Positions 48,054-55,635 of a stretch of 64,000 bases of DNA are shown one piece after another. The translations under genes were made by a program, and so were the position numbers. Within the stretch, counting starts at the first letter, position 1; each line of letters begins with the position of its first letter. The notes under the pieces are model-generated. The model saw only the letters and a program-made list of their open reading frames with translations. It was not told the DNA's origin and did no database searches. Source of the DNA: Henckelia pumila (taxonomy: Eukaryota; Streptophyta; Magnoliopsida; Lamiales; Gesneriaceae); assembly GCF_033568475.1 (NCBI RefSeq), contig NC_133121.1:134758375-134822374 (forward strand). The letters run 5' to 3'.

Positions 48054-48062
48054 TTTATAAAA
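48054..48062. repeat. 9-bp target-site duplication TTTATAAAA, left copy
   Basis: Identical to 55627-55635 and present once at the empty site 40844-40852. Nine bases is characteristic of Mutator-like elements. Confidence 0.9.
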
Positions 48063-48190
48063 GGGTAAATTATAAATTCATACCCAAACATATTTTTATC
48101 TTATATTTTAATACCTAATCCATTAAAACGTATTTTTTACTTCCTGGAGAGAGAAAATTTTGTTTAAAAATACCAATTCTACCCTTATCT
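48063..48190 (+). repeat. Left terminal inverted repeat of the insertion
   Basis: Starts GGGTAAATT and ends around TACCCTTATC; pairs in diverged form with 55543-55626. Sequence just inside (48191-48234) contains TCACTAAG, ten A and GTGA, a string also found at about 13455-13478. Confidence 0.65.
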
Positions 48191-48234
48191 ATTAAAAATC
48201 CTAATAAATCACTAAGAAAAAAAAAAGTGAGAGA

Positions 48235-50219
48235 ATGGTTACTAAAAACAAAACAAATCCAAATAGTATTTATATAAAAATTCAAATTAAAATCAAAAAA
48301 CATAAACCATATCATATACATGCTTATGTTGATACAGGAGCAAGTATGTGTCTAGCAAGTAAGCACATACTCCCAACTCATTATTGAAAGAAATACGACA
48401 AATGATTAAAAGTTCGAATAGGAGATGGATCAATAATCATGCTTAATACAGTAGCAGAAAAATTAAAAATAGAAATAGAAGAAACAAAATTTGTAATACC
48501 CATTATATAGAATCAGGAATGGACATTATAATAGAAAATAACTTTTTAAGAGAATATCTGCCCTTTACACAATTTGAAAATCACATAACTTTAAACAAAG
48601 GATCATCAATGATTTATATTCTAAAATACGAACAGCATTTCGTGTAGGAAATAAAGGATTTACAAAGAATTTTCATAAACGAAATACAAATCCAATAGAA
48701 CTAAAAATAGAAAATATTTTAACAATTAATCATGAAAAAGAAATCATGAAGAAATTTCATGATATTTGTTCTGAAAATCCTCAGGACAAAATTAAGAAAA
48801 GAAAACAATTCATTGCTTCAATAAAACTTAAAGACCCTAATATCACAATTCGTGAAGCACCAAGAAGATGCAACATGAATGATGTAAAAATATTCGAAAA
48901 AGAGGTTCAAGAATTACTAAAACTTAAGATAATCATCCCAAGCAAGAGTCCACACTCTTCACCAGCCTTTTATGTCAGTAAGAAAGACACTGATAAGAAA
49001 AGAATGGTAATTGATTATCGAAAATTGAATAATGCAAACAATTATGGATGGATATTACATCCCAAACAAGAATGATTTACTATCTTATATAGGATGAATG
49101 AAATATTTCTCTAGTTTAGATTGTAAATCAGGATTCTGGCAAATTCAGCTAGAACCACAAACATAATTATTTACATCATTCAGTTGTTCAAAAGGACAGT
49201 ATCAATGGACTGTATTATTTTTCGGACTTAAACAAGCACCAGGTATCTTTCAAAGATATATGGATGAATCTTTTAAATTATATGTAGATTTTTGTTGTGT
49301 TAATATAGATGACATATTAATTTATTCAAAAACACTAGATCAACATTATAAAGACCTCATGACAGTATTAGATATTTGTCATAAAGATGGAATTATATTT
49401 TCTGAAAAGAAAGCACAATTGTTTAAAACAAAAATAAATTATTTAGGATTACAAATAGAAGATGGAAAACATTGTTTACAACAACATATACTTAAGAAAA
49501 TTCACGATTTTTCTAGTGAAATCAAGGATAAAGATCAATTAAGAAGATTTTTAGGATTATTAACTTATTCTGAAAATTACATTAAGAAACTTGCAGAAAT
49601 CAGAAAACCTCTTCAGGCAAAACTTAAACAAGAATATAAGTAGAAATGGTCTAAAGAAGATACTAATTATATTGACACTATTAAAAAGAATATAATTAGT
49701 AATCTTCCCGAATTATATTTTCCTTCAAATAAAGACATAATAATAATTGAAATAGACGCCTCAGATGAATACTGGGGAGCATGTTTAAAAGCTTATACAA
49801 GAGAAAGAAATTTAGAAGAACTTACTAAAACAGCTACTAGGAATAATGAAGAATTATGTAATTATACATCAGGAACTTTTCAAGGTGCACAAATAAATTA
49901 TCATTCAAATGAAAAAGAATTATTAGCTTTAATATATACAATTAGAAATTATGAGATTTATCTTATTTCTAAACCGTTTTTAGTAAGAACGGATAATATG
50001 AATTTAACATATTTCAAGACAAGAAAAATATCAAGAAATACAGGGAGAAATGCAGCAAGGTTAATAAGATGGCAATTGAAATTGAACCATTATCAGTTCG
50101 AGATCCAACATGTCAAAGGAACGGATAATTCATTATCCAACGCATTAACCAGAGAATTTCATCCAAATTATACTATCCGTAGTAACGAAATAACAAAAGA
50201 GATCCTAAGTGATCCATAA
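48235..50219 (+). pseudogene. Endogenous caulimovirid pol: protease, reverse transcriptase, RNase H
   Basis: The protease active site AYVDTGASMC is at about 48322-48351, followed by a conserved GMDIIIENNFL block near 48520-48545. RT spans about 48746-49640, with SPAFYVSKKD, a KLNNAN-type block and the catalytic VNIDDILIYSK at about 49299-49331. RNase H has EIDASDEYWG, NEKELLAL and VRTDN (49750-49995), ending at 50219. No integrase follows, which separates it from LTR elements and is normal for caulimovirids. It is broken by UGA codons in the protease (near 48386 and 48404), a frame change near 48510, stops near 48645, 49074 and 49643, and small frame slips, so no polyprotein can form. Confidence 0.9.
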
Positions 50220-50230
50220 AATGACCACGA

Positions 50231-50410
50231 GTCATCCGAACATGCCTTAGAAAGCATGGGAAATATAAATTGATGAAATGAGATTTATATTCAGAGACAT
50301 GAATTATTTTATGACTTTCAGTCATCCGAATATGCCTCAGAAAGTATGGGAAATATAAATTGATGAAAATGAGATTTATATTCAGAAACATGAATTACTC
50401 TATGAGTAAA
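50231..50410 (+). repeat. 90-bp tandem duplication between viral pol and the next ORF
   Basis: GTCATCCGAACATGCC...ATGAATTA (from 50231) is repeated from 50321 with about 90% identity. It lies in the non-coding gap after pol; a 20-bp TA run follows at 50531-50550. Confidence 0.88.
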
Positions 50411-53015: not shown

Positions 53016-53957
53016 ATGACAGAAGAAACAATTCCAAATCAAAATAGTCAGATTGATGAATCTGAAGAGAACCAAAAGTATAATTTGAATATTATATTTA
53101 ATCAGAATAAGTTTGTTGAGATACAGAAAACAGAGTTTTCTAATTCAAAAACAAATCTAATAGACCAACCATGAATATTAAGCAAGATTTCAAATTTTAT
53201 TAATCCCAGAAAAAATTTAATTTATTATTCGATTCGTACAAAAGAACGATCTTGTAAAATAAATAACGAATCAAGGTCTAATACTCTGAAGTTATTAACA
53301 ACTCAAGATATTGATACCATCATGGCAAAATCCAGTGAAAAAGAACGATCTGAACTGAAATATGTTCACATTGGAGGAATCGAAATAATAGTATCAGCTC
53401 ACTATCGAGAAGGAATAGATACATCAATTGAAATCACAGTTCGTGACAAAAGGATACGTAATTTTGAGGATTCTATCCTTGGAAAAATTGAAGGAAACTT
53501 ATCTTACAAAAAAATGAAATTTTGTATTTATCCACAATACAATATATCTCTTTTTGATAAAAACATAAATGACATTTTAACATTAGATTATTACTTTTAT
53601 AGAAATAATCTTATGTTAACAGGAAACCATCCGATCAATATAAACTATGTTGTCGGTTTAACAATAAGTAATAATTCTCAAACAGGAATAATTTCAACAA
53701 AACCAACTATTTCTGTTGAAAGAATGTTTGAAAATATTACAAGAATTGAACACCCTCGAAAAGCATTTATTGAAGAAATAAATCCCTATAAAAGATGGAG
53801 TTCAGATGACCTCCAAATCACAAAACAGTCTGTACCAAGAAGATCATTATCATTTGTTAGAAATGATGAAGATATTCTTGAAAAGATTGGAACCATGAAT
53901 CAAAATATTCTTAAAATTAAACAAGCTATTGTTAATGAATCAACCTCATCGCAATGA
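53016..53957 (+). pseudogene. Caulimovirid movement protein
   Basis: One frame of 313 codons with a single in-frame UGA at 53172-53174 (a tryptophan codon is likely ancestral). The conserved centre has VHIGGIEIIVSAHYREGID followed by IEITVRDKRI, the core of caulimovirid movement proteins of the 30K superfamily, which enlarge plasmodesmata for cell-to-cell spread. Its stop overlaps the next gene's start as ATGA. Apart from the UGA it is the best kept viral gene here. Confidence 0.85.
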
Positions 53958-54247
53958 CGTCCTTAATAAAATTAGAAAAAGATCTAGGAGATTTAGAAAA
54001 TAATATCAATAAGATCAATCTATCAATACAAGAATTAGAGAAGAATTTCAAAGAATATATTGATTTAGCAACGACTAGATTAATAATTAAACATGAAAGA
54101 CATAGTAATGAAATATTAAACTATCTTAAAAAAGTTCTTCCAATAGATAAAGAAAAAAGGAAAATGGAAGAAGAACCACCATTCAAAATTGAATCATGGT
54201 ATAGAAATCCCCTTAGTTATGTCAAATATAAGTATGGAGATGTTTAG
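53954..54247 (+). pseudogene. Virion-associated-protein-like viral ORF
   Basis: An intact 97-codon frame overlapping the movement gene by four bases. The N-terminal 45 residues form a heptad pattern (LEKDLGDLENNINKINLSIQ), a coiled coil as in caulimovirid virion-associated proteins, which bridge coat and movement protein. The small size and position between movement and coat genes support this; no unique motif is seen. It is listed as a pseudogene because the genome as a whole is defective. Confidence 0.6.
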
Positions 54248-55537
54248 TGAAACAGACTCATCTGATTTTGAACAAATAGGAGTAAATACAGAAGAATTAT
54301 ATCATTTACATCAGGAATTAGAACAATACAGAGATATGGATATTTCACAATCAGAATCTGAAGATGATTCTAGATCACGATTAAATCTACGAACGAATGT
54401 AGAAGGTAGTGGTGGAAGAGATGATGAAGAATTTAAATATAACAGAGACCAATACTATGGATTTTATAAATATGTTAGAGATATTCTTAGAGAATCAAAA
54501 ACATCAGGATTTGTGAAACAAAATATCTTAGATTTAGGTTGTTCAACAGCCAAAGAAAGAAAATCAAAGATAGATCATTGGGAAAATGAACTATCAGTAC
54601 AAATTTAATTAACACCATTATTAGACAAAAGTGAGAATATTCAAGTTTTAACTCATGGGATGATAAAAATGACACTGGTAGGAGCAGTAAGAACTTGGGC
54701 TGAAAACCTAGTAATTACTACTAATAATGATGCTAATCTGGTAGCTAAGAACATAGAACAAAATAGAGCAATTTTTATTCTAGATAATATTAAACTATGC
54801 AATTTATGTTATCTAGAAGAATTTATATGTGATTATGAAACAAACTATTATCAGTTAATAGATGCTGATAAAAAAGAACATTATAAATTAAGTATTTTTA
54901 ATAAAATACCTAATATACCAATAAATAGTAAAGATGAATTCTTAACTAGCGCTTCTGCCAAAACATTAGGAGGAGCTATTAAATTCATTAAAGATGTTAT
55001 AACAAAAAAATGTCATGAAGTAACATTAAATAAAAGAATATCCAGATCTTACAAACAAAACAATAACCTTTGTTGTGACAAAATGGAATTCACAGTAAAA
55101 GAATACGGTTGCAAAACAAACATGTCACACAAACATTTAAAACGACAGAAACAGAATAAATTTAATAAACCTTATAAATCTTTTAATAAAAAATTTATTC
55201 CCTATAAGAAAAAGAAATTTAAAAGAAATTTCTTCAGAAAACCTTATAAAAGAAAATTTTATAAAAAAATTGATAACAAAAAACCACCTTGCCCAAAGGG
55301 TAAAGGAAAGAATTGCACATGTTGGTTGTGCAACGAAGAAGGACATTATGCGAATGAATGTCCAAAACGAAACGAAAAGAAAAATAAAGTTAAACTTCTT
55401 GAAGAAATATATATTATCTAGTAGAAACATTTTAATTTTCATCCGACGATGAAAATATTTATTATCTTGATGAATCAAGTGAATCAGATTTTGAATCTGA
55501 TTCCACATTTGATAATTCAAGAAATAAAAATGATTAA
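54219..55537 (+). pseudogene. Caulimovirid coat protein
   Basis: Begins with an acidic segment (SETDSSDFEQ), then a structural region, a strongly basic run (about 55140-55270) and a zinc knuckle CWLCNEEGHYANEC (about 55321-55362), the nucleic-acid-binding signature of caulimovirid coat proteins. Breaks: in-frame UAA at 54606-54608 and a stop at 55419-55421. An acidic, serine/aspartate-rich tail (DESSESDFESDS) continues in a shifted frame to 55537. The gene overlaps the preceding ORF's end. Confidence 0.85.
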
Positions 55538-55542
55538 AATAA

Positions 55543-55626
55543 CGACAAGGGCATTTTTGGAAAATGCAACTCTAGGTACTAAACTCAAACTTTTGTTTGG
55601 TTTGAATACCTATTTCCAAGTTGCCC
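55543..55626 (-). repeat. Right terminal inverted repeat of the insertion
   Basis: On the minus strand starts GGGCAACTTGG and ends CCAAAAATGCCCTTGTCG; the plus-strand coat-protein tail ends at 55537, only five bases away. Confidence 0.65.
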
Positions 55627-55635
55627 TTTATAAAA
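55627..55635. repeat. 9-bp target-site duplication TTTATAAAA, right copy
   Basis: Identical to 48054-48062, directly outside the GCCC right end of the insertion. Confidence 0.9.

What the first reader, a model, noticed from the sequence alone, without database searches (positions are those of the whole stretch)
48054..55635. A caulimovirid genome packaged between Mutator-like ends, with 9-bp target duplication and an empty site in the same window
Seen: 48063-55626 is flanked by TTTATAAAA on both sides, has diverged inverted ends (19 of the first 30 bases match, both starting GGG), and the paralogous segment at 40844-40852 has one uninterrupted TTTATAAAA. Known: 9-bp duplications with long diverged TIRs are typical of Mutator-like elements, whereas endogenous pararetroviruses are normally thought to enter through repair of breaks without inverted ends. 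Inference: either a virus genome was captured as cargo and moved by a transposase in trans, or virus DNA integrated into a MULE-type MITE already at this site. The viral part fills the space between the TIRs almost exactly, which makes the cargo idea attractive.
Basis: partly seen in the sequence, partly recalled or inferred. Interest (0 to 1): 0.92.

Follow-up and report, generated by a model that had tools for sequence, protein, structure and literature searches.

The report
Plant virus carrying transposon ends
A complete plant DNA virus sits in this plant genome between the inverted ends of a jumping gene, and many related copies share those ends and bear the insertion scar of a cut-and-paste transposon, which suggests how viruses with no integration enzyme of their own can spread through a genome.

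Summary
The host genome (885 Mb) holds many insertions of the same unit: a caulimovirid genome, opened between coat protein and polymerase, with imperfect ~26-bp inverted ends (GGG...CCC). Of 45 copies read at both ends, 34 have a perfect 9-bp target duplication and 8 more match at 8 of 9; none extends to 10 bp. The largest subfamily seen has 317 left and 297 right termini within 3 mismatches, control 0. Of 20 sampled exact left termini, 20 lead into virus: no virus-free TIR pair was seen. Coat protein and RT are under strong purifying selection between subfamilies (net dN/dS 0.05-0.16; off-frames 0.6 or more in 13 of 14) but far weaker or none within the window's subfamily. So the ends most likely belong to a virus lineage that kept working, not to dead cargo in one MULE or a MITE hit by a virus. 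Likely mechanism: a Mutator-type transposase of the host, acting in trans. The enzyme, a joined circular form and the host species were not identified. My searches found no earlier report.

The parts
48054..48062 (.). left 9-bp target duplication TTTATAAAA
55627..55635 (.). right 9-bp target duplication TTTATAAAA
40844..40852 (.). empty site (single TTTATAAAA) in the paralogous segment 39304-44009
48063..48088 (+). left terminal inverted repeat core
48063..48234 (+). left non-coding end, from the terminus to the ATG of the polymerase ORF
   Evidence: recurs in the nine left ends printed
48235..48387 (+). start of polymerase ORF with aspartic protease (Peptidase_A3, partial)
48578..49643 (+). 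reverse transcriptase (two open pieces in different frames); Pfam match is to the second piece
   Evidence: closest solved relative 8r0s, a caulimovirus enzymatic polyprotein
49644..50219 (+). RNase H
50230..50405 (+). 86-bp tandem repeat, two copies
50566..51694 (+). ORF(s) at the place of the viral transactivator; label by position only, no family match over cut-off
51825..51831 (+). TATAAAA, possible viral promoter (motif recalled)
52474..52485 (+). TGGTATCAGAGC, tRNA-Met primer binding site (label recalled)
53175..53957 (+). movement protein (PF01107, E 3.6e-34)
53954..54247 (+). small ORF at the place of a virion-associated protein; label by position only
54189..55537 (+). coat protein with zinc knuckle and acidic tail; in this copy broken by a stop at 54606-54608 and by a frame change before 55439
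55538..55626 (+). right non-coding end between coat stop and terminus
55601..55626 (-). right terminal inverted repeat core
46483..48053 (+). left host flank, paralogous to 39304-40843
55636..58871 (+). right host flank, paralogous to 40853-44009

Best explanation
This is one of many insertions left by a caulimovirid lineage that carries Mutator-like terminal inverted repeats in the non-coding stretch between its coat-protein and polymerase genes. SHOWN: the ends, the 9-bp duplications at many sites, the permuted viral gene set between the ends, no recognisable transposase or integrase in the frames tested, and purifying selection on viral genes between subfamilies whose copies carry the ends. 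INFERRED: in the replicating circle the two ends lie back to back between coat and polymerase genes; a Mutator-type transposase of the host recognises them, cuts there and inserts the linear genome at an AT-rich 9-bp target; inserted copies then decay. Whether excision can return a circle is unknown.
For: 45 copies read at both ends: 34 with 9/9 and 8 with 8/9 target duplications, 0 exact at 10 bp, against 67 of 1980 cross-pairs at 8 or more; targets resemble TTWWWWWAA. Three flank pairs repeat (segmental duplications: L032/L002, L036/L038, L039/L040), so about 42 are independent. Termini in the whole genome: 317 left and 297 right of subfamily B within 3 mismatches, controls 0. Lengths: 14 of 26 measured pairs are 7.70-7.76 kb, within the 7.1-9.8 kb given for the family (passage of PMC10741241). 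At 20 movement-protein copies without a listed right end at the usual distance, 17 show the terminus by motif, an 18th by BLAST, 2 have no coat gene there. 20 of 20 sampled exact left termini lead into pol. Net dN/dS between subfamilies: CP 0.054 (95% 0.02-0.10), 0.093, 0.156, 0.053, 0.070; RT1 0.10 (0.03-0.24); RT2 0.096 (0.01-0.58); off-frames give 0.60-4.2 in 13 of 14 comparisons and one undefined (negative) value; MP A-B 0.07 on a small net dS of 0.019. Within subfamily A the ratios are 1.12 (MP), 1.27 and 1.37 (RT), 0.63 (CP). Between A and B, 4 positions (17, 18, 20, 23) of 8 left and 7 right changes altered to the same base in both ends. The host has 150 scored MULE transposase matches of 1188 candidates, some with open frames over 700 aa.
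Against: No host MULE with these ends was found (not searched exhaustively), so the enzyme is assigned by the 9-bp duplication, target and end type alone. The exact joined-end pattern expected from a circle occurs 0 times in the genome, which gives no support to a circular intermediate. One copy (L117/L093) pairs a B-like left with an A-like right end, so the ends do not always change together. Terminal similarity is only 18-20 of 26. Three of 45 pairs lack the duplication (L103 5/9, L081 7/9, L149 left end lost). Within-group ratios are not neutral everywhere: CP 0.46 (B), 0.27 (A2), 0.44 (D), 0.43 (E), RT1 0.57 (B), MP 0.19 (B); these groups are small, some are deep, and the B movement proteins were chosen by protein score, which lowers dN. 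No free virus relative was found, so function outside the genome is inferred from substitution patterns only.
Confidence: 0.77

Rival explanations
1. Pack-MULE-like capture: one MULE engulfed a viral genome once, and the transposase in trans then multiplied it as dead cargo.
For: Same ends, duplications and trans-acting enzyme as in the main reading; within the window's subfamily copies diverge in a star-like way (my reading of the tree) with MP and RT ratios of 1.1-1.4 and CP 0.63.
Against: Between subfamilies CP and RT are under strong purifying selection in the true frame, which dead cargo should not show; the break sits exactly between two ORFs.
Confidence: 0.13
2. Each subfamily is an independent capture of an end-less virus by one MULE family, which would explain selection between subfamilies without the virus owning the ends.
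For: Explains low dN/dS between and higher ratios within subfamilies.
Against: The non-coding DNA between coat stop, right terminus, left terminus and pol start is alike across the subfamilies read, with the same break points; no virus-free TIR elements among 20 sampled exact termini.
Confidence: 0.05
3. Virus DNA integrated by break repair into a MULE-type MITE already at this site.
For: A widely held view of caulimovirid integration is repair of breaks at (TA)n sites (PMC10377300, section 3.1 read).
Against: The same junctions at many sites with new 9-bp duplications (termini counts); no short TIR pairs among 26 measured; the paralog shows an empty site without any MITE.
Confidence: 0.01
4. 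An integrase of an LTR retrotransposon inserts the viral DNA.
For: Such involvement has been proposed (PMC10377300, section 3.1 read).
Against: 9-bp duplications and GGG...CCC ends, not the 4-6 bp and TG...CA known for LTR elements (recalled); no LTRs at the ends.
Confidence: 0.03

Closest known systems
Endogenous caulimovirids / pararetroviruses (e.g. florendoviruses)
   Same: Same viral gene set, many decayed copies in a plant genome.
   Different: The known ones are thought to enter by break repair and are often in tandem arrays or at (TA)n (PMC10377300 section 3.1). Here 44 of 45 copies read at both ends have the fixed termini and 42 of 45 a 9-bp duplication at 8 of 9 or better, and one exact pattern for joined tandem copies found none.
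Mutator-like elements, non-autonomous (incl. Pack-MULEs)
   Same: 9-bp duplication, AT-rich targets, inverted ends, no transposase family in the frames tested.
   Different: The interior is a virus genome under purifying selection between subfamilies, not host gene fragments. Pack-MULE features are recalled.
Teratorn (piggyBac-herpesvirus fusion in medaka; abstract and outline of PMC5601938; passages of PMC10175614)
   Same: A virus genome fused with a DNA transposon that moves as one unit.
   Different: [quoted passage not shown] here a 7.6-7.7 kb reverse-transcribing plant virus with no recognisable transposase.
Cauliflower mosaic virus (genus Caulimovirus)
   Same: Best solved relative of the RT piece, 8r0s 'Enzymatic polyprotein', E 2.9e-56 (that this entry is the cauliflower mosaic virus RT is recalled, with the title of PMC11363490 seen in a listing).
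   Different: No inverted ends are known at its coat-polymerase junction (recalled, not tested).

Membership tests
Caulimoviridae | aspartic protease - RT - RNase H polymerase | tested here: met
   PF02160 3.4e-12, PF00078 1.3e-18, PF17917 1.1e-22
Caulimoviridae | movement protein and coat protein with zinc knuckle | tested here: met
   PF01107 3.6e-34; PF22909 2.5e-6; zf-CCHC 3.3e-5
Caulimoviridae | tRNA-Met primer site | tested here: met
   TGGTATCAGAGC exact at 52474; meaning recalled
Caulimoviridae | no integrase domain (true of most members, passage of PMC10741241) | tested here: met
   none in 20 of the 35 frames listed
Caulimoviridae | circular dsDNA replicative form | not testable with these tools
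   exactly joined ends not found in the genome
Mutator-like element | 9-bp target duplication | tested here: met
   34 of 45 perfect, 8 of 45 at 8/9
Mutator-like element | terminal inverted repeats | tested here: met
   18/26 and 20/26; imperfect
Mutator-like element | encodes a Mutator transposase (autonomous members) | tested here: not met
   no transposase family in 20 of 35 frames; can only be a non-autonomous user
Mutator-like element | moved by a Mutator-family transposase | not testable with these tools
   host has PF10551 matches; partner not identified
Pack-MULE | captured cargo without function for the element | tested here: not met
   net dN/dS 0.05-0.16 between subfamilies for CP and RT pieces
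ordinary endogenous caulimovirid | entry by break repair: variable break points, no fixed ends | tested here: not met
   fixed termini at the many sites read

The most novel reading that the evidence does not exclude
A plant pararetrovirus with a temperate-like cycle: it carries transposon ends as part of its genome, uses the host's Mutator transposase as its integrase to enter chromosomes, and may also leave by transposase excision as a circle with joined ends in which coat and polymerase genes are again next to each other.
Probability: 0.35. Interest if true: 0.97.

Novelty: new variant of a known kind. Interest (0 to 1): 0.92.

Why it matters
How endogenous pararetroviruses integrate and multiply is an open question: a 2023 review says the mechanisms remain speculative (PMC10377300, section 3.1 read), and the Teratorn review says the mechanism of integration and propagation is unknown (PMC10175614, passages). 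Here fixed ends and a 9-bp scar give a concrete, testable answer for one lineage: borrowing a DNA-transposon system. If true, it is a virus-transposon fusion of another kind than Teratorn: in a plant, with a reverse-transcribing virus and no recognisable transposase of its own.

Tried and rejected
Break repair into a MITE: rejected. LTR-type integration: rejected on duplication length and end type. Chance origin of the inverted ends: not excluded by the gapped statistics of single A copies, excluded by subfamily B and by the same termini at other sites. A joined-end (circle or tandem) form: one exact pattern, 0 matches in the own genome; 3 matches in viral contigs are taken as chance, with no protein match better than E 1.8 to five viral pieces. 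Free relatives in viral contigs: none confirmed. Literature: (open-licence PMC papers only) listed no report that I could recognise of a caulimovirid with inverted ends; beyond the listings I saw passages, one section and one outline with abstract. Host species: not worked out. Host MULE with the same ends: not found, not searched exhaustively.

Rows dropped before counts: 2 of 30 coat pieces with under 90% cover, 40 of 44 loci used (L119 and L120 gave no coat match, L061 and L111 had 60% cover or less), L055, L061 and L071 not in group A, L111 kept in B with 57% cover, 13 of the 25 A coat pieces; unpaired ends were not counted. Of the 100 exact left termini listed, 20 were sampled; one search used the listed termini of three contigs only (69 left, 96 right). 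The script stopped with an error after its coat table; the RT part was rerun.
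Full report
What is there. The insert 48063-55626 is flanked by TTTATAAAA on both sides and a paralogous segment in the same window has the site once, uninterrupted. The paralogs differ by 5.7% (left) and 8.8% (right) in Jukes-Cantor terms, while the terminal branch of this copy's coat gene is about 2.3%, which fits an insertion younger than the duplication. Between the ends lies a permuted caulimovirid with a full set of genes: protease, RT, RNase H, an ORF at the transactivator position, a TATA-like box, a perfect tRNA-Met primer motif, movement protein, a small ORF and coat protein with zinc knuckle and acidic tail (labels by position or motif are recalled). 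The break lies between the coat stop (55535-55537) and the polymerase ATG (48235). The copy is broken by stops and frame changes. Among solved structures the RT piece is closest to 8r0s, which I recall as the cauliflower mosaic virus enzyme.

In this copy alone it is weak. The case was settled by the host genome, which became searchable (885 Mb, 133 contigs).

Copies elsewhere. The left end query scored 40 of 344 candidates, all matching; the right end query scored 40 of 467. The 8 copies first fetched, the window's included, run from the same GGG terminus into viral polymerase DNA, each with its own flank. I read both ends of 45 copies: 34 have a perfect 9-bp duplication, 8 have 8 of 9, and 3 do not match (L103 with 5, L081 with 7 in a T run, L149 whose left end is lost); no perfect match extends to 10 bp; cross-paired flanks reach 8 of 9 in 67 of 1980 cases, a count that includes duplicated loci. 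A few termini have single-base changes, such as GGA or CGG. The targets are AT-rich and roughly palindromic, TT-W5-AA.

Is the end always with the virus? A movement-protein search scored 147 of 2191 candidates, all but the window's own at 92-97% identity; by my count of the table 82 of 147 have no stop in the match (the best-scoring are favoured). At 20 of these with no listed right end at the usual distance I read the place where the right end should be: 17 show it by motif, L142 reaches it by BLAST, and L135 and L141 have no coat gene there; the right end of L135's element may be the one listed about 14 kb further on. They revealed a larger subfamily B, with left end GGGTTAATTGTCAATCACTCCCTAAA and right end GGGCAACTTGTAGATAACTCCCTAAA (read inward), 20 of 26 identical. 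With up to 3 mismatches these occur 317 and 297 times, control 0. Among exact termini listed on the three contigs that I compared (69 left, 96 right), 26 pairs lie within 40 kb; 14 are 7.70-7.76 kb, none is shorter than 6.2 kb, and 8 are 14-19 kb, which I take as insertions within them or mis-pairing. I sampled 20 of the 100 listed exact left termini, chosen because no listed movement-protein match lay at the usual distance (two have one 13-16 kb on): 20 of 20 run into polymerase DNA. So no virus-free element with these ends was seen, within that sample; termini with mismatches were not sampled.

Cargo or virus? I counted substitutions in pieces, without building any consensus. Each copy used was seen with at least one terminus. 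Within subfamily A, dN/dS is 1.12 (MP), 1.27 and 1.37 (RT) and 0.63 (CP); within B it is 0.57 and 0.98 (RT), 0.46 (CP) and 0.19 (MP, copies picked by protein score); within the small groups A2, D and E the CP ratio is 0.27-0.44. Between subfamilies it is 0.11-0.37 (all). Subtracting within-group divergence, net ratios in the true frame are 0.053-0.156 for CP in five comparisons and about 0.10 for two RT pieces, while the off-frames give 0.60-4.2 in 13 of 14 comparisons and one undefined negative value, with wide intervals. In an earlier binning of 40 coat pieces the ratio falls from 1.24 at dS under 0.03 to 0.13 at dS 0.4-0.6. Pairs are not independent and groups B, D and E are small (3-8). 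The plain reading is that viral proteins worked, in lineages that already had the ends, and that inserted copies then decayed. Parallel changes in both ends between A and B at positions 17, 18, 20 and 23 (of 8 left and 7 right changes) fit ends that function as a pair; one mixed copy (L117/L093) shows that this is not strict.

Mechanism. The insert has no recognisable transposase or integrase in 20 of 35 frames tested. A 9-bp duplication, AT-rich targets and GGG...CCC ends point to the Mutator superfamily (from established knowledge, recalled), and the host has 150 scored MULE transposase matches of 1188 candidates, some with open frames over 700 aa. I therefore think the virus's ends are used by a host enzyme in trans. 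The circular form with joined ends is inferred: a search for exactly joined ends gave 0 matches in the genome, which neither shows nor excludes it, but argues against end-to-end tandem arrays.

Compared with the known. A review states that the mechanisms of caulimovirid capture remain speculative, with break repair and LTR-element machinery as the two ideas (PMC10377300, section 3.1). Another states that the mechanism of pararetrovirus integration and propagation is unknown (PMC10175614, passages). Teratorn is the nearest concept (PMC5601938, abstract). Searches over open-licence papers listed no caulimovirid with inverted ends; subscription papers and preprints were not covered. I file it as a caulimovirid by tested features, and as working like a non-autonomous Mutator-like element; membership in that superfamily by its enzyme is untested.

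Confidence. That the composite is mobile with fixed ends and 9-bp scars: about 0.97. That the ends belong to a virus lineage that was replicating: about 0.8. That a Mutator transposase does it: about 0.85. Temperate-like exit by excision: about 0.35.

Noticed in passing
window 3815-12651: A Ty3/gypsy-type LTR retrotransposon on the minus strand (type from my reading of the frames): LTRs 3815-5886 and 10577-12651 (97% identical), gag-pol frames 5959-10307, primer motif TGGTATCAGAGC at 10560-10571 minus.
   Followed up: no
window 57509-60217 and 60671-64000: Two very large palindromes (84% and 92% identical to their own reverse complement), the second running to the window edge; could be a fold-back element, a duplicated inverted gene or an assembly artefact.
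   Followed up: no
window 13602-19757: Long direct repeats: 14348-16169 with 17937-19757 (98.5%) and 13602-14229 with 16162-16787 (94%).
   Followed up: no
L062 (G000:C2:98366450-98366991): A subfamily A element is followed within about 230 bases by the left end of a subfamily B element in the same orientation.
   Followed up: partly
L035 / L099 (G000:C1:83105308 and 83142409): One element's two ends, with matching 9-bp duplication TTAAATCAA, lie 37 kb apart, so a large nested insertion probably sits inside it.
   Followed up: no
window 50230-50405: 86-bp tandem repeat just after the RNase H frame in the viral part.
   Followed up: no
L133 (G000:C43:375456-376006): A more diverged viral copy whose right end, by eye, resembles the left end of subfamily B more than other right ends do.
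   Followed up: partly
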